DNA of 64,000 nt from assembly GCF_003664325.1 (NCBI RefSeq), contig NZ_RCDA01000001.1, forward strand, positions 1-64,000, written 5' to 3'. A model generated the notes under the pieces. It saw only the letters and a list, made by a program, of their open reading frames with translations, did not search any database and had not been told where the DNA came from. Within the stretch, counting starts at the first letter, position 1; every line of letters starts with the position of its first letter. This document shows, piece by piece, positions 14,626 through 23,829 of the stretch. Made by a program: the position numbers and the translations under genes. This stretch comes from Alkalispirillum mobile (GTDB taxonomy: Bacteria > Pseudomonadota > Gammaproteobacteria > Nitrococcales > Halorhodospiraceae).

Positions 14626-15711
14626 TTACCGCCGCAGGGCGGTCACCGAGAGGATACGCGGCAGGAATTCCGCCAGGCATTGCCACTGCTCGCCCCCGTC
14701 GTGGCTGCCGAAGAGATGGCCGCTGGAGGTGCCAAAGTACAGCCCCGGTGTGTCGGCACCGTCATCCCCCATGGCCTCGCGCAGCACGGTCACGTAGGCG
14801 TGCTGCTGGGGCAGTCCTTGGGTGAGCGGTGCCCAGGTCTCGCCGGCGTCGCGGCTGCGGTAGACGCGCAACCGCCCATCGCAGCAGGTCCGCAGGTGGT
14901 TGCTCTCGATGGGCAGTACGTAGACCGTGTCCGGGTCGCCGGCCGGGGTGACCAGCGCGTAGCCGAAATCGCTGGGCAGCCCAGGGGTGATCTCCGTCCA
15001 GTGCCCGCCCCGGTCATCGCTGCGGTAGACCCCGTTGTAGCACTGCCGGTAGAGCCGCTCGGGCCGGCGGGGGCAAAGCACCGTGCGGTGCACGTTGTGA
15101 CCGGTCACCGCGCACCGCCCGGGCAGGTTCTCCGCGCGGACCCCCTCGTTGCAGGGCTGCCAGCTGCGCCCGCCGTCGTCGCTGCGGAACACCCCGCCGG
15201 CGGAGATGCTGGCGTAGAGCCGCCGCGGTGATTGCGGGTCCACCAGAATGGAGTGCAGCGAGAACCCGCCGCGGGCTGGCTCCCAGGTGTCCCGGCTGGG
15301 ATGTTCGTTCAGCCCGCTTATTGGTGTCCAGGACTGGCCGTAGTCGTCGCTGCGGAAAAGCCCGGCCGGGTCGATGCCGGCAAAGACCGTCTCCGGGGCG
15401 TCGCTCGGCCCGGGGGCCAGGTGCCAGACCGCCTTCATCCGCTTTTGCCAGAGCCCCGGCCGGTGCATCGGCACGGAAGCCAGCGGCTCCCAGCTCAGGC
15501 CGGCGTCAGCGGTCCGGTAGATATGGGCGCCCCAGATTGCATGGTTGACCGCGGCCAGGCCCCGGGACCGGTCCCGCGGGTCGAGCCAGGCATGCAGCAC
15601 CTCGTAACCTTCGATCAGCGGGCCGGCCATCTCCCAACGGCCCCCTCGGCCGGTGTCCTGGAGCCGGAACAGGCCTTTCTGGGTGCCGACGAGCAGGGTG
15701 GTCTCGTTCAC
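14626..15711 (-). CDS. BNR/Asp-box repeat beta-propeller protein
   Basis: A 361-residue protein made of repeated units with Asp-box motifs (SxDxGxxW type): DAGLSWEPL, DYGQSWTPI, DGGRSWQPC, DRGGHWTEI, DAGETWAPL and HDGGEQWQC, about 50 residues apart. This predicts a beta-propeller like the VPS10/sialidase-type proteins called exo-alpha-sialidase in databases. The catalytic Arg triad and nucleophile of true sialidases are not evident, and there is no signal peptide, so a sialidase activity is not supported. I chose GTG at 15711, with AGGAA about 10 bases upstream; a TTG at 15750 is the longer option. It converges with the DUF1992 gene, six bases apart. Confidence 0.75.
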   Translation of the reverse strand: MNETTLLVGTQKGLFRLQDTGRGGRWEMAGPLIEGYEVLHAWLDPRDRSRGLAAVNHAIWGAHIYRTADAGLSWEPLASVPMHRPGLWQKRMKAVWHLAPGPSDAPETVFAGIDPAGLFRSDDYGQSWTPISGLNEHPSRDTWEPARGGFSLHSILVDPQSPRRLYASISAGGVFRSDDGGRSWQPCNEGVRAENLPGRCAVTGHNVHRTVLCPRRPERLYRQCYNGVYRSDDRGGHWTEITPGLPSDFGYALVTPAGDPDTVYVLPIESNHLRTCCDGRLRVYRSRDAGETWAPLTQGLPQQHAYVTVLREAMGDDGADTPGLYFGTSSGHLFGSHDGGEQWQCLAEFLPRILSVTALRR

Positions 15712-15779
15712 GTATGTGCGTTCCTGTGCTGCAGCATGGAAAAGGGCCAATCAGTACCCGACTAAGTTACCATGAAGTC

Positions 15780-16223
15780 ATGACCAAGCCATCGCCCAAG
15801 ACAAACGCCGCAGCCGCCGCCGGCCTGACCCTGCCAGCCGGTGAGCAGGCCCGCCTGGCCCGGTATGGGCGGGCCCGTTGGCCCTATGAGGCCTGCGGCC
15901 TGCTGCTGGGGCGTGGCGGCCGGGTGGAGCGGCTGGTGCTCTGCCGCAACATCGCCGAGCGCCGCCGGGACCGTTACCTGCTGCACCCCCGCGATTTCCT
16001 GCGCTGGGATCGCCTGGGCCACCGCCTGGGGCTGGAGATCCTCGGGGTCTGGCACACTCACCCGGAAGGTGGGGCGGTGCCGTCGGAGACCGACCGGGCA
16101 CAGGCCTGGCGTGGCTGGAGTTACCTGATCGCGGCGGTGGATCGCGACACCGTGACCGAATTGCGCAGTTGGCGCTTGAGCGCCGATCAATTCAGCGAGG
16201 AAGCCCTATGTCTGAACCCCTGA
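15780..16223 (+). CDS. JAMM/MPN+ metallopeptidase (Mec-like)
   Basis: A 147-residue zinc isopeptidase of the JAB1/MPN family (M67). All catalytic residues are present: E37 in the YEACGLLLG strand, H92 and H94 in WHTHPEG, then S102 and D105. Bacterial relatives such as Mec+ release amino acids or peptides from the C-terminus of ubiquitin-like sulfur carriers such as CysO. The next gene, overlapping by 16 bases, encodes a ubiquitin-like/rhodanese/E1 fusion, so the peptidase probably acts on that carrier. No CysM-like cysteine synthase lies nearby. The start ATG at 15780 avoids a divergent overlap with the BNR gene. Confidence 0.85.
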   Translation: MTKPSPKTNAAAAAGLTLPAGEQARLARYGRARWPYEACGLLLGRGGRVERLVLCRNIAERRRDRYLLHPRDFLRWDRLGHRLGLEILGVWHTHPEGGAVPSETDRAQAWRGWSYLIAAVDRDTVTELRSWRLSADQFSEEALCLNP

Positions 16224-17650
16224 TTACCGTACGCCTCCCGGCGCCGCTGCGCCCCTTCGCCGATGACCAGGCGGAGCTGGCGATTGCGGCCGGCAGCGTG
16301 GTCGAGGTGCTCGACGCCCTGGCCGAGGACTACCCGTTGCTGCACGCCCGGCTGGTGGACCCGGACGGCGAGCTGCGCCGGTTCGTCAACCTGTTCCGGG
16401 GCGAGCAGGATGTGCGTGAGCTGGACGGCCAGGAGACCGCGCTTGCCCCGGGGGACGTCCTGACCATTCTGCCGGCGGTGGCCGGCGGTGGCCCGTCGGC
16501 GCTGGAACGGATGGCCCAACGCATCCGCGAGGAGGTCCCGGAGATTACCCCGGCGGAAGCGCAGCATTTGCTGGCCGACGGGGCCGTGTTGCTGGATGTG
16601 CGCGAGGCCGGTGAGGTGGCCGAGGGTAGCCCGACCGGCGCCCTGCGTATCGACCGCAACTGGCTGGAATTGCGGATCGAGGAGGCGGTACCGGAGTTGG
16701 ACCGCCCTGTGCTCACCCTCTGCGCCGTGGGCCAGCGGTCGCTGCTGGCTGCCGACGACTTGCGCCGGATGGGCTACCGTGACGTGCGCAACATCGCCGG
16801 CGGCTTCAACCGCTGGAAGGACGAGGGGCGGCCCTTCGAGGTGCCGCGCATGCTGGATGAGTCTGCGCGGGCACGCTACTCGCGCCACCTGCGCATGCCC
16901 GAGGTGGGCGAGCACGGTCAGTTGAAGCTGGGCGACAGCCGGGTGGTGCTGGTGGGGGCCGGCGGTCTCGGCTCACCGGCCGCGCTCTATTTGGCGGCCG
17001 CCGGGGTAGGCACGCTGGTGCTGATTGACCACGACGTGGTGGATCGTAGCAACCTGCAGCGCCAGATCCTGCACAGCGACGACCGTGTGGGGGAGCCCAA
17101 GACGGAGTCCGGTCGCCAGGCGATCGCCGCGCTCAACCCCGAGGTGACGGTGGAGACGGTGCAGGCCCGGCTCAGCAGCGAGAACATCGAGTCCGTGCTG
17201 GCGGGGGCGGACGTGGTCATTGATGGCTCGGATAACTTCCCCACCCGGTACCTGGTCAATGATGCCTGCGTGAAACTGGGCCTGCCCCTGGTATATGGCG
17301 CGGTGTACCGTTTCGAGGGGCAGGTGACGGTGTTCAATGTGGGGGAGGGCCCTTGTTACCGCTGCCTCTACCCGGAGCCGCCGCCACCGGAGCTGGCGCC
17401 ATCCTGCGCCCAGGCCGGGGTGCTGGGGGTGCTGCCGGGGGTGATCGGCCTGCTTCAGGCCACCGAGGCGTTGAAGCTGCTGCTCGGGGTCGGGGAACCC
17501 CTATCGGGGCGGCTGCTGCACTATGACGCCCTGCGCGGCCAGTTCCAGCAGCTGCGCATGAAGGCCAACGCCGACTGCCCGGTCTGTGCGCCGGGGCGGC
17601 CCTTTCCGGGGTACGTGGACTACGAGGCGTTCTGTAGCGCGTCGGGCTGA
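16208..17650 (+). CDS. Ubiquitin-like (ThiS/MoaD)-rhodanese-E1 (MoeB/ThiF) fusion protein
   Basis: A 480-residue three-domain fusion. Residues 1-95 form a ThiS/MoaD/CysO-like beta-grasp domain ending in a Gly-Gly-Gly run (93-95, ILPAVAGGG). Residues 105-213 form a rhodanese domain with C172 in the active loop (CAVGQRS). Residues 220-460 form an E1-like adenylating domain with the nucleotide loop GAGGLGS at 250-256, a likely catalytic C400 and zinc pairs C383/C386 and C457/C460. Adenylation, sulfur transfer and the carrier itself are thus in one chain. MoeB-rhodanese proteins normally carry rhodanese at the C-terminus and no carrier. The ATG at 16208 follows GAGGA and overlaps the JAMM gene. 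Confidence 0.85.
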   Translation: MSEPLITVRLPAPLRPFADDQAELAIAAGSVVEVLDALAEDYPLLHARLVDPDGELRRFVNLFRGEQDVRELDGQETALAPGDVLTILPAVAGGGPSALERMAQRIREEVPEITPAEAQHLLADGAVLLDVREAGEVAEGSPTGALRIDRNWLELRIEEAVPELDRPVLTLCAVGQRSLLAADDLRRMGYRDVRNIAGGFNRWKDEGRPFEVPRMLDESARARYSRHLRMPEVGEHGQLKLGDSRVVLVGAGGLGSPAALYLAAAGVGTLVLIDHDVVDRSNLQRQILHSDDRVGEPKTESGRQAIAALNPEVTVETVQARLSSENIESVLAGADVVIDGSDNFPTRYLVNDACVKLGLPLVYGAVYRFEGQVTVFNVGEGPCYRCLYPEPPPPELAPSCAQAGVLGVLPGVIGLLQATEALKLLLGVGEPLSGRLLHYDALRGQFQQLRMKANADCPVCAPGRPFPGYVDYEAFCSASG

Positions 17651-17670
17651 GCGGCGGGCAGACGAGAAGA

Positions 17671-17696
17671 CCGATGCCGCGTTACCGCGGCATCGG
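17671..17696. terminator. Palindromic hairpin between convergent genes
   Basis: An 11-bp perfect stem (CCGATGCCGCG) with a TTAC loop lies between the stop of the UBL-E1 gene and the stop of the convergent small protein. It has no T-tract, so its action as an intrinsic terminator is uncertain. Confidence 0.5.
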
Positions 17697-17705
17697 CCGT
17701 GGCGT

Positions 17706-17981
17706 TCAGAGGGCCTCGTCGAGGGCCTCGGGGTGGGCCTCGCAGAAGTGCTTCAGAGCCAGTTTCAGCTTGACGACATGGCGGGTGTCGTTGCGAGCCT
17801 CCGCATGCTCGATGTCGTCGAGGATCATCCGCCGGATGCGGGGGCAGCCGTCCGGCGTGTGAACCAGGTAGTTGCCCAGTTCAATGGCAACCATCTCCGA
17901 GCAGTGCTCGTGCTCGCAGATCGCATCCACTTCCTCTTCCGTAAGCTCCGCGAGCTCCCGGCAATCATCGATGGTAAGCAT
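17706..17981 (-). CDS. Conserved hypothetical small acidic protein
   Basis: A 91-residue soluble, acidic, mostly helical protein starting MLTIDDCRELAELTEEEVDA. It has Cys at residues 7, 22, 27 and 46 and a His-rich middle, with the phrases ICEHEHCSEM and HFCEAHPEALDEAL. GGAGGT lies five bases before the ATG at 17981, so it is certainly expressed as this frame. I do not recognise a named family. The Cys/His spacing is compatible with metal or redox binding, but nothing proves it. Confidence 0.7.
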   Translation of the reverse strand: MLTIDDCRELAELTEEEVDAICEHEHCSEMVAIELGNYLVHTPDGCPRIRRMILDDIEHAEARNDTRHVVKLKLALKHFCEAHPEALDEAL

Positions 17982-22271: not shown

Positions 22272-22730
22272 TCAGGTGCGCACGCGATCGCCCACACCGG
22301 GCAGGGCGCGCAGCTCGGCCAGCTCCTGCTCGTCTGGCAGGTGGGGACGGTCGCGCTCCCGGTCGACAATGCAGAGAAAGCCCAACGGCTCGTCACCGGT
22401 GGCGTGGAACTGGTGAAAGGTCTGTGGGGCGATGTAGATGCAGTCGTGCGCCGCAATGCGGTGCAATTCCCGGCCCAGCACCAGTTCCCCCTCACCGCGC
22501 AAAATGACCACGGTGTGGGTGTGTTCGTGCCGCTCCAGTGAGGAGTACCCCCCGGGCGCGATCTCGAAGTAGCGGGTCTGGTGGTTGAGCGCGCTCTGTG
22601 TACCGTCCTCGCCCAACAGCGTCTGCCGGGTGATGCCGTGGAAGTGGCTCCCCTCGGTCTTGTACGCCTTGTGGGGGACCCCTTCCCAGCGGTAGCCGCG
22701 GGCCCGGATCACCTTCGATTGCTCCGCCAT
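22272..22730 (-). CDS. Cupin, probable 1-methylthioxylulose 5-phosphate methylsulfurylase
   Basis: A 152-residue single cupin. Motif 1 is G60-G-Y with H68-E-H70 and a downstream E80; motif 2 has H106 in APQTFHQFHA. In Rhodospirillum rubrum the cupin encoded near the RubisCO-like protein converts 1-methylthio-D-xylulose 5-phosphate to 1-deoxy-D-xylulose 5-phosphate with release of the methylthiol group to glutathione. The immediate adjacency here (one base between genes) supports the same function. A generic cupin isomerase cannot be excluded from sequence alone. It is fifth in the operon. Confidence 0.75.
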   Translation of the reverse strand: MAEQSKVIRARGYRWEGVPHKAYKTEGSHFHGITRQTLLGEDGTQSALNHQTRYFEIAPGGYSSLERHEHTHTVVILRGEGELVLGRELHRIAAHDCIYIAPQTFHQFHATGDEPLGFLCIVDRERDRPHLPDEQELAELRALPGVGDRVRT

Positions 22731-22731
22731 A

Positions 22732-23829
22732 TCACTCCCGTATCGCTCGCATCAGGTCGCGGGCGGCGGCCTGGATGTCGCCCTGGGCGTACAGGCTGCC
22801 CCCGATCAGCAGGATGGTATCGGGCCCGTAGGCCCGCTTCCAGTGGCCGGCCCGTTTGATATCCACGCCGCCGCCGGGCGTGGGCCAGGCCGCGGGCAAT
22901 CCCTCGAGCCCGCGGCGCAGGCCGTGGTTGATGCCCGCGCAGGTCTCGGCGGTAAAGCGGAATCGGCCGCCCACGTTGGGGTAGATAACCGCGTCGGCGC
23001 CGGCGATGCGGAAGAGCTCACCCAGCAGCAGCTCCGGGCTGATGCCATGCTGCGGCAGGAACAGGCTGCCGGTCATGGCCGGGTGGGCCATCAGGGCGAG
23101 GCCGTACTCGTCCCGCGCCCAGCGCAGGCTCTCCAGCCCGGTCAGCCAGGGGCTGATCAGCACCATTCGGCAGCCGGCATCCCGGGCCGCGGCCAGTCGC
23201 TGCCCCAGCAGGCCGGGGGCAGCGGTGACATTGGGCAGGTAAAGGCTGCGGCCGCCGGTCTCGCGGTTGGCCTGTTCGACCGCAGCCTGGCAGGCGGCCA
23301 ACCGGTTGACGAAGGGGGCATCCGGTTGGTCGGCCAGGCCGTGGTCGTCCTTGATCAGGTCCACGCCGCCGCGGGCGAAGGCGTCGCAGCGTTCGGCCAG
23401 GGCCTGCGGGGAGAGCCCCATGGGTTTGAGGGCGGCGCAAAGCAGCGGCCGGTCATGAACGCCCAGCTGCTCGCGCAACCCCGGCACGCCGAGCGCCGGG
23501 CCGCCCCATTGCTGCAGCAGGCTGCGGGGCCAGTCCACGTGCACCAGGCGGATGCCGCTCTGGAGGGAGATGTTGCCGAACAGCAGGTTCAGGCACTGGG
23601 TCAGCTCCCGGCCCAGGGCGGCAACCGGGTAGTCGATCACCAGGCTCCAGTGGTCGGCGCGGGGCTCCAGGCTGCGAATGCGGCCCACCATCCGGTGCGC
23701 GATGTCTGGCGGCAGGCAGTCGGCGGGCATCTCCACGGTCTGCTCCAGGGCGATGCCGCGGGCCTTGCCCTCCGGGGACTCGTCCTCGGTCAGGTAGAGC
23801 TGGTAGGTGGCACTGATGACCTCGCTCAC
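22732..23829 (-). CDS. RubisCO-like protein (form IV), probable methylthioribulose 1-phosphate isomerase
   Basis: A 365-residue form IV RubisCO homologue. The TIM-barrel active-site landmarks are K135 (ALKPMGLS, matching the KPKxGLS lysine) and K160-D-D-H163 (GGVDLIKDDHG), where true RubisCO has KDDE; the fourth residue is His. Loop and phosphate-binding phrases (LMAHPAMTG, YPNVGGRF, TPGGGVDI) are also present. Substitutions rule out carboxylase activity. The KDDH motif and partner cupin match the R. rubrum-type RubisCO-like protein, which isomerises 5-methylthioribulose 1-phosphate to 1-methylthioxylulose 5-phosphate. It overlaps the EamA gene by four bases. Confidence 0.85.
   Translation of the reverse strand: MSEVISATYQLYLTEDESPEGKARGIALEQTVEMPADCLPPDIAHRMVGRIRSLEPRADHWSLVIDYPVAALGRELTQCLNLLFGNISLQSGIRLVHVDWPRSLLQQWGGPALGVPGLREQLGVHDRPLLCAALKPMGLSPQALAERCDAFARGGVDLIKDDHGLADQPDAPFVNRLAACQAAVEQANRETGGRSLYLPNVTAAPGLLGQRLAAARDAGCRMVLISPWLTGLESLRWARDEYGLALMAHPAMTGSLFLPQHGISPELLLGELFRIAGADAVIYPNVGGRFRFTAETCAGINHGLRRGLEGLPAAWPTPGGGVDIKRAGHWKRAYGPDTILLIGGSLYAQGDIQAAARDLMRAIRE

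What the first reader, a model, noticed from the sequence alone, without database searches (positions are those of the whole stretch)
15780..17650. JAMM peptidase overlapping a ubiquitin-like/rhodanese/E1 three-domain fusion
A single protein carries the carrier (ending in GGG at 93-95), a rhodanese with C172 and an E1 domain with C400. The usual order has no carrier and puts rhodanese last. The carrier's diglycine is internal, so it cannot be adenylated unless cut at that point; the adjacent JAMM peptidase with complete E37/H92/H94/S102/D105 set is a clear candidate. This suggests a maturation step not described for CysO or MoaD systems that I can recall. JAMM-ThiS-MoeB neighbourhoods are known in general.
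Basis: partly seen in the sequence, partly recalled or inferred. Interest (0 to 1): 0.85.

Follow-up and report, generated by a model that had tools for sequence, protein, structure and literature searches.

The report
Sulfur carrier fused to its activator
A bacterium makes a ubiquitin-like sulfur carrier joined to the very enzyme that must activate it, so a neighbouring peptidase most likely has to cut the carrier free first; the cut itself is a known kind of step, but this three-part fusion was not found described, and the carrier keeps unexpected company with an unexplained propeller protein.

Summary
Window 15780-16223 (+) encodes a JAMM peptidase with all catalytic residues; 16208-17650 (+), overlapping it by 16 nt, encodes a 480-aa CysO-like carrier + rhodanese + MoeB/ThiF-type E1. 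It is no accident of sequencing: 20 distinct fusions were found, all with a JAMM gene directly upstream (20 of 20, against 0 of 35 rhodanese-E1 loci of the same class without a carrier). Pro89, Ala92, Gly93 and Gly94 are invariant in 20 of 20; Gly95 is not (2 of 20), so the likely cut is Gly94|Gly95. In the AlphaFold2 model 92-94 is the only segment with pLDDT under 50. Unfused relatives end at, or 1-23 residues past, the same Gly-Gly.

The claim that this maturation is undescribed is wrong: Iyer et al. (2006) predicted it, and JAMM release of fused MoaD/SAMP1 has been shown; rhodanese-first MoeB is a known family too. What looks new is a carrier capped by its own rhodanese-E1 enzyme, arising probably at least twice.

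The sulfur acceptor is open: cysteine synthase adjoins 8 of 20 fusions; 11 of 20, the window included, instead adjoin a BNR beta-propeller gene of unknown function, which sits beside a carrier in 26 of 30 loci and is fused to one in an acidobacterium.

The parts
15780..16223 (+). JAMM/MPN+ (Prok-JAB) metallopeptidase, 147 aa; E37, H92, H94, S102, D105
   Evidence: Pfam PF14464 82.5 bits; solved relatives 2kcq, 2kks, 5lda; catalytic residues invariant in 13 of 13
16208..17650 (+). three-domain fusion, 480 aa: carrier - rhodanese - E1
   Evidence: ORF; Pfam ThiS + Rhodanese + ThiF; 19 further distinct loci with the same single ORF
16208..16489 (+). CysO-like ubiquitin-fold sulfur carrier, residues 1-94
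   Evidence: best solved match 3dwg chain C (the depositors' name is 9.5 kDa antigen cfp10A; that this is CysO is recalled), whose last residue (93) aligns with Gly94
16481..16489 (+). Ala92-Gly93-Gly94, inferred new C-terminus after cleavage (cut between 16489 and 16490)
   Evidence: invariant 20 of 20; only segment of 3 or more residues with pLDDT < 50 in the model; split carriers end here or 1-23 residues later
16490..16543 (+). linker, residues 95-112 (inferred 'cap' side of the cut)
   Evidence: mean identity to the window 27.5% against 60% rhodanese and 69% E1
16547..16822 (+). rhodanese domain, residues 114-205; active-site Cys172 in CAVGQRS
   Evidence: PF00581 50.7 bits; Cys172 20 of 20
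16877..17584 (+). MoeB/ThiF-type E1 adenylation domain, residues 224-459; Cys400; CxxC pairs 383/386 and 457/460
   Evidence: PF00899 291 bits; aligns to E. coli MoeB 1jw9 and ThiF 1zfn; these cysteines 20 of 20
14626..15750 (-). BNR/Asp-box beta-propeller gene, divergent from the JAMM gene; candidate functional partner
   Evidence: Sortilin/BNR Pfam hits; solved homologue 3b7f E 6e-91, named only 'Glycosyl hydrolase, BNR repeat'; beside the carrier system in 11 of 20 fused loci

Best explanation
A CysO-type protein-thiocarboxylate sulfur-transfer module made as a precursor. JAMM and fusion are overlapping genes, so probably co-translated. The JAMM peptidase cuts the fusion after Gly94 (inferred), giving a 94-residue carrier with a free Gly-Gly end and a 386-residue rhodanese-E1 enzyme of the PRK08762/MoeB type. 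The E1 domain adenylates Gly94; the rhodanese persulfide at Cys172 supplies sulfur, giving carrier-COSH. The carrier passes sulfur to an acceptor and is recharged; the JAMM may also hydrolyse carrier adducts as Mec+ does. Before cutting, the enzyme is the cap on its own substrate, so carrier and activator are made 1:1 and stay off until the peptidase acts. Shown here: anatomy, conservation, gene linkage, position of the joint. Inferred: cleavage, thiocarboxylation, order of steps. Unknown: the acceptor (cysteine via CysM where cysM is adjacent; undecided in the window's lineage).
For: Three domains and JAMM intact. Same fusion in 20 distinct loci, JAMM directly upstream in 20 of 20; in 18 of 19 relatives a candidate start of the fusion lies 0-12 nt before the end of the JAMM gene (98 nt after it in L017). 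JAMM within the fetched flank (about 4 kb at most) in 0 of 35 rhodanese-E1 loci of the class with no carrier. P89/A92/G93/G94 20 of 20 beside a weakly conserved linker. The carrier aligns with CysO up to its last residue, which matches Gly94. Model mean pLDDT 92.2, residues 92-94 the only segment under 50. Split relatives: 27 of 40 carriers have a 1-23 residue tail after Gly-Gly, 13 of 40 end exactly there. Capped carriers (fused or tailed) lie in genomes with a strong Prok-JAB in 48 of 49, exposed ones in 10 of 13. An ATG within 25 codons after the joint in only 4 of 19 relatives, and in the window, so the enzyme is not generally made separately (GTG/TTG not examined). Biochemical precedents in print. 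cysM downstream in 8 of 20.
Against: No biochemistry. The capped-versus-JAMM association is weak (Fisher p 0.026) and not corrected for kinship; one tailed carrier (L068, in a 2.1 Mb metagenome assembly) has no JAMM, and 10 of 13 exposed carriers keep one, so the JAMM must do something else too or be dispensable. Among the 34 loci without a detected carrier, 2 (L022, L046) still have a JAMM gene next to the rhodanese-E1 gene. In M. tuberculosis the protease that cuts MoaX is unidentified (PMC4326299), so a JAMM is not the only possible cutter. No cysM next to the window's operon; the genome's own CysM is of the E. coli type and only 34-37% identical to the operon-type CysM. pLDDT is also lowish (about 70) at 391-410 and 471-480, so low confidence is not unique to the joint.
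Confidence: 0.78

Rival explanations
1. The fusion works whole: the carrier domain is a docking or regulatory part of the enzyme and other stand-alone carriers do the sulfur transfer.
For: The genome has other ThiS/MoaD-family carriers with free Gly-Gly ends and a separate MoeB/ThiF-type E1. Iyer 2006 notes ThiF proteins with an N-terminal Ub-like domain that typically co-occur with a separate ThiS.
Against: The Gly-Gly would have no reason to be invariant (20 of 20) next to a variable linker. Split relatives carry the same carrier as a separate gene beside the same enzyme. None of the other carriers that I read in this genome has the PAVAGG end. JAMM linkage would be unexplained.
Confidence: 0.08
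2. The carrier is a protein modifier (urmylation/sampylation-like): after release it is conjugated to lysines and the JAMM removes it.
For: The JAMM's best curated model is haloarchaeal desampylase (77.3 bits, under its cut-off of 130), and SAMP1 is the best carrier model (58.1 bits, cut-off 60). Exposed carriers keep a JAMM in 10 of 13 genomes, hinting at a role beyond trimming.
Against: The intact rhodanese Cys172 and the adjacent cysM in 8 of 20 point to sulfur. I noticed no E2-like gene beside the window's operon, but did not search for one. SAMP1 does both jobs (PMC4443979), so this is not exclusive.
Confidence: 0.12
3. The module makes molybdopterin (MoaD role) in the window's lineage.
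For: Genes that I read by eye as moeA and moaA lie convergent to 7 and 5 of 20 fused loci; split JAMM-less relatives sit beside genes read by eye as mobA and moeA. MoeZR serves both CysO and MoaD in mycobacteria (PMC3227635, passages).
Against: The carrier scores higher against CysO than against MoaD-type structures. The genome has its own MoaE, a MoaD-like protein (49 bits, cut-off 66) and a separate E1. These genes are convergent, not co-operonic, and I saw none among the window's nearest ORFs. The labels by eye come from no search.
Confidence: 0.15
4. Another protease cuts the fusion, and the JAMM acts only later, freeing cysteine from the carrier as Mec+ does.
For: MoaX is cut in mycobacteria by an unidentified protease. 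A JAMM is kept with uncapped carriers in 10 of 13 genomes.
Against: None of the 20 fusions lacks an adjacent JAMM; JAMMs are known to cut this kind of joint.
Confidence: 0.07

Closest known systems
CysO-CysM-Mec+-MoeZ cysteine biosynthesis (Mycobacterium tuberculosis)
   Same: CysO is the best solved match of the carrier; JAMM, E1 + rhodanese, and in 8 of 20 fused loci an adjacent cysteine synthase
   Different: carrier fused to the enzyme; rhodanese N-terminal to E1; no adjacent cysM in the window
MoaD-MoaE / SAMP1-MoaE fusions and MoaX
   Same: carrier with internal Gly-Gly joined to a partner; cleavage after the second Gly needed for function (PMC4443979, PMC8832034, PMC4326299; passages); the cutter is a JAMM in the first two
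   Different: there the partner is the acceptor enzyme MoaE; here it is the activating enzyme itself
Capped sulfur carriers with QbsD-type JAMM (QbsE, PtmS2; HcyS-Ala recalled)
   Same: a JAMM exposes Gly-Gly by removing extra C-terminal residues (PMC6006322, one passage)
   Different: the caps named in that passage are 1-2 residues; here it is 386 residues of enzyme
Ub-like domain fused to the N-terminus of ThiF (Campylobacter type, Iyer 2006)
   Same: carrier-like domain and E1 in one chain (PMC1779556, passage)
   Different: no rhodanese between, no JAMM mentioned, usually a separate ThiS alongside; whether its Gly-Gly is kept was not examined here
NF006444/PRK08762 rhodanese-MoeB
   Same: residues 99-478 score 642.6 bits, cut-off 449
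   Different: the model (387 positions) has no N-terminal carrier
Iyer et al. 2006 operon classes 4b/4c
   Same: JAB + E1-rhodanese + ThiS/MoaD-like, with or without cysteine synthase; the text predicts JAB freeing fused carriers (PMC1779556, passages)
   Different: no carrier-rhodanese-E1 fusion in the passages that I read (figures not held)
1v8c, MoaD-related protein, 168 aa
   Same: carrier with an internal GGG aligned with 93-95 and a further chain after it
   Different: 168 aa in all, too short to hold an E1; second part not examined

Membership tests
JAMM/MPN+ metallopeptidase | upstream Glu plus H-S/T-H-x7-S-x2-D | tested here: met
   E37, H92, H94, S102, D105; 13 of 13 aligned; HxHP...S..D found in 19 of 19 fused relatives' JAMMs
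JAMM/MPN+ metallopeptidase | zinc-dependent peptidase activity on a carrier | not testable with these tools
   no assay
ThiS/MoaD/CysO sulfur carrier | ThiS-family domain with Gly-Gly end | tested here: met
   PF02597 45.5 bits, cut-off 22.5; CysO alignment to the last residue; GG 20 of 20
ThiS/MoaD/CysO sulfur carrier | free C-terminal carboxylate on the second Gly | tested here: not met
   internal in the translated protein; met only if cut
MoeB/ThiF E1 (PRK08762, rhodanese-MoeB) | score over the curated cut-off | tested here: met
   642.6 against 449 bits
MoeB/ThiF E1 (PRK08762, rhodanese-MoeB) | rhodanese active-site Cys and CxxC pairs | tested here: met
   Cys172, 383, 386, 457, 460 each 20 of 20
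MoeZ/MoeBR (rhodanese last) | C-terminal rhodanese | tested here: not met
   rhodanese at 114-205, E1 at 224-459; PRK07878 MoeZ 334.7 bits against a cut-off of 647
CysO-CysM-Mec+ cysteine pathway | dedicated cysteine synthase in the operon | tested here: not met
   window: none adjacent; the genome's cysteine synthases lie elsewhere and its CysM is of the E. coli type. Met in 8 of 20 fused loci
CysO-CysM-Mec+ cysteine pathway | carrier-COSH donates sulfur to a serine ester | not testable with these tools
   needs enzymology
haloarchaeal desampylase (NF041370) | score over the curated cut-off | tested here: not met
   77.3 against 130 bits

The most novel reading that the evidence does not exclude
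In the window's lineage the released carrier serves neither cysteine nor thiamine nor molybdopterin but a dedicated BNR/Asp-box beta-propeller protein of unknown chemistry. Such propellers travel with a ubiquitin-like carrier in Proteobacteria, with examples in an actinobacterial and an acidobacterial genome, the latter as a carrier-propeller fusion with its own internal Gly-Gly. That would be an undescribed thiocarboxylate-dependent (or Ubl-conjugation) pathway, and the carrier-rhodanese-E1 fusion its self-capped, JAMM-released activating unit.
Probability: 0.35. Interest if true: 0.75.

Novelty: new variant of a known kind. Interest (0 to 1): 0.47.

Why it matters
In the papers that I saw, the fused carriers whose cleavage was shown are joined to their acceptor (MoaE), or carry a short cap; here the cap is the rhodanese-E1 enzyme itself. 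It would turn peptidase release into an on-switch for sulfur activation and fix carrier and enzyme at 1:1. Because unfused, tailed, exactly-ended and fused forms of one operon exist side by side, it is a natural series for asking what JAMM peptidases do for bacterial sulfur carriers, and the fused form gives a clean gel-shift substrate. The propeller linkage points to a client that seems unassigned: no paper in the held library has both the words BNR and MoaD (one search, open-licence papers only).

Tried and rejected
Considered and rejected: (1) a frameshift or assembly error joining two genes: 20 distinct fusions, also in named strains (Aromatoleum tolulyticum, A. toluolicum, Dechloromonas denitrificans). 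(2) A separate internal start for the enzyme: only 4 of 19 relatives have a Met within 25 residues after Gly-Gly (the window has one at residue 102; GTG/TTG not examined). (3) Gly95 as part of the motif: 2 of 20. (4) Chance carrier match: PF02597 over cut-off and CysO alignment to the last residue. (5) One single origin of all fusions: rejected for the 20 together (AU p 0.0225); without the planctomycete L017 not rejected (p 0.173) (quick tree; the second test was chosen after seeing the first tree).

Led nowhere: promoter/terminator scan of 15600-17800 (0 promoter-like; 1 terminator-like site, inside the E1 part, 0.7 expected). Paper searches for QbsE/QbsD gave mostly unrelated hits and for HcyS/HcyD little. 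The AlphaFold2 model of the propeller is middling (mean pLDDT 79.3 from 5 sequences) and was not searched. The predictor gives no pairwise error table, so the domain arrangement in the fusion model is not interpreted; Foldseek with it returned E1 structures at the top.

Rows left out: the table uses the 46 carrier-bearing loci, the window and 15 loci (62 rows); 34 of the 80 loci have no carrier found near and were left out (2 of these, L022 and L046, have a JAMM gene near), and duplicates of one contig (L007/L162, L016/L127) are counted once. L054 and L072 (carrier fused to cysteine synthase) count as fused there, which is why 22 rather than 20 appear; they are among the 39 that one search prints as split. 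The JAMM status of 4 further loci (L019, L022, L028, L049; no carrier near) is not in the table. The tree holds 61 chosen rows, that 48.

Full report
WHAT IS THERE. The JAMM gene (15780-16223, +) and the fusion gene (16208-17650, +) are intact and overlap by 16 nt. Pfam finds Prok-JAB in the first (82.5 bits), and ThiS (residues 8-94), Rhodanese (114-205) and ThiF (224-459) in the second, all over their cut-offs.

HOW COMMON. Within the window's order 12 of 54 genomes match at 1e-90 or better and in the class 42 of 370 at 1e-95. Fetching these loci raised the total to 20 distinct fusions, the window included: gamma- and betaproteobacteria and one planctomycete (L017). Of the window's 11 other family members 9 show only E1-domain matches and 2 none at 1e-60. 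Thirty-five class-level loci have rhodanese-E1 with neither carrier nor JAMM in the fetched stretch (about 4 kb a side at most). Among the 34 carrier-less loci (L022, L046) do have a JAMM gene near.

THE JOINT. Across the 20 fusions Pro89, Ala92, Gly93 and Gly94 never vary. Position 95 is A 10, S 4, G 2, and T, V, L, M once each. The linker 95-112 has 27.5% mean identity to the window, against 41% for the carrier, 60% for the rhodanese and 69% for the E1 part. The carrier's best solved relative is CysO (3dwg chain C), which ends at the residue aligned to Gly94. The AlphaFold2 model (71 sequences, mean pLDDT 92.2, pTM 0.76) has one segment under 50: residues 92-94; blocks 391-410 and 471-480 are also lowish, about 70. 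In split relatives 13 carriers end exactly at this Gly-Gly and 27 have 1-23 further residues. In L013, L014 and L023 carrier stop and enzyme start overlap as ATGA, one small step from a fusion.

THE JAMM LINK. Adjacent in 20 of 20 fusions; in 18 of 19 relatives a candidate start of the fusion lies 0-12 nt before the end of the JAMM gene (L017: 98 nt after it). Genome-wide, capped carriers have a strong Prok-JAB in 48 of 49 and exposed ones in 10 of 13 (p 0.026, kinship ignored). The three exposed, JAMM-less cases (L021, L026, L169) also have the propeller gene nearby; the weak JAB hits left in their genomes (E 1e-6 to 4e-6) are probably RadC-like, which I did not test. Against a simple rule: L068 is tailed without a JAMM, and 10 exposed carriers keep one.

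ORIGIN. In the rhodanese-E1 trees the fused set needs 5-6 changes, of which well-supported branches force 2. One clade of all 20 is rejected (p 0.0225); without L017 it is not (p 0.173). At least two origins is the fair reading, unless the fusion was lost repeatedly.

CLIENT. Operon-type cysM follows 8 of 20 fusions (L008-L012, L017, L118, L119), and a homologue lies in the fetched stretch of 31 of the 39 loci that one search prints as split. In 11 of 20, the window included, no such cysM was found in the stretch; a BNR propeller gene lies within about 4 kb instead. These 11 are all from the window's order, so shared ancestry may explain part of it. L120 has neither nearby. The window's genome has CysM and CysK of ordinary type and a MoaE.

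THE PROPELLER. The 359-aa query (14629-15705, -) matches at 1e-50 or better in 36 of 370 class genomes. Of 30 loci fetched with flanks of about 1.5 kb, 26 have a carrier-like ORF beside it: the window's fused one and 25 separate ones, all ending exactly in GG. L185, L186, L187 and L189 have none in the flank. Window-type propellers (E < 1e-110) occur in 7 of 370 genomes, 6 of which also hold a fused or carrier-JAMM-enzyme operon; of the 7 genomes with such an operon 6 have the propeller, not always next to it (table made by hand, p 1.4e-11; three of the genomes are one genus, kinship ignored). Among 30 chosen carrier genomes 16 have a propeller at 1e-30 and 14 do not. Of the 8 loci fetched there, 7 have a separate carrier ORF in the stretch (one, L222, with a one-residue tail); in the eighth (L221, the acidobacterial genome of L023) a carrier with internal ISGG is fused to the propeller. 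An annotated plasmid (Mitsuaria sp. 7) shows a MoaD/ThiS family gene next to an 'exo-alpha-sialidase', while two alphaproteobacterial plasmids show the propeller without a listed carrier (their gene tables are incomplete). In 45 aligned propellers Lys25, His166, His221, Gln236 and Arg324 (numbered from the ORF start at 15750) are invariant, which may mark a binding or active site. A homologue is solved (3b7f).

COMPARED WITH WHAT IS KNOWN. Iyer et al. 2006 (PMC1779556, passages read) describe JAB + E1-rhodanese + carrier operons, list Alkalilimnicola ehrlichei for one, note Ub-like domains fused to ThiF, and write that JAB might cleave off a fused ThiS/MoaD and generate a free carboxyl end. 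HvJAMM1 cuts SAMP1-MoaE precisely after the glycine and is needed for its activity (PMC4443979, passages). DRJAMM cuts a natural MoaD-MoaE fusion (PMC8832034, passages). MoaX needs its Gly-Gly and cleavage (PMC4326299, passages). Capped carriers typically need a QbsD-type protease (PMC6006322, one passage). CysO is sulfurated by MoeZR, used by CysM and regenerated by Mec+ (PMC3227635, passages). So the principle is known; a carrier capped by its own rhodanese-E1 was not seen in searches (only the listings and these passages were read; subscription papers, such as an E1-superfamily survey that I recall, are not held).

VERDICT. Real, conserved, mechanistically clear by analogy; a new variant of a known kind. 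The less expected result is the propeller-carrier association, whose function is open.

Noticed in passing
14626-15750 (-); L184-L213: BNR/Asp-box beta-propeller genes sit beside a separate MoaD/ThiS-like carrier ending exactly in Gly-Gly in 25 of 30 fetched loci (the 26th carrier is the window's fused one; 4 have none in the flank). No paper in the held library has both 'BNR' and 'MoaD'.
   Followed up: partly
L221:979-2562 (+): Acidobacterial ORF with a carrier (internal ISGG and a low-complexity linker) fused to the N-terminus of a BNR propeller.
   Followed up: partly
L054, L072: Carrier fused to the N-terminus of a cysteine synthase in actinobacterial loci, AGG kept at the joint; a JAMM gene nearby.
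   Followed up: no
L226 (Rhizobium leguminosarum plasmid pRLTp73_2): MoaD/ThiS + MoeB of the rhodanese-E1 length inside a YcaO / LanM lanthipeptide-like cluster: possibly a sulfur supply for a modified peptide.
   Followed up: no
window 22272-23829 (-): RuBisCO-like protein (closest curated model DK-MTP-1-P enolase, well under its cut-off) beside a cupin; recalls the methylthio-xylulose/isoprenoid sulfur salvage shunt (recalled, not tested).
   Followed up: no
G000 C6:77730-77921 and C1:910808-910999: Two ThiS-like genes ending in IGGG and VGGG, each followed by what looks by eye like thiG, in one genome.
   Followed up: no
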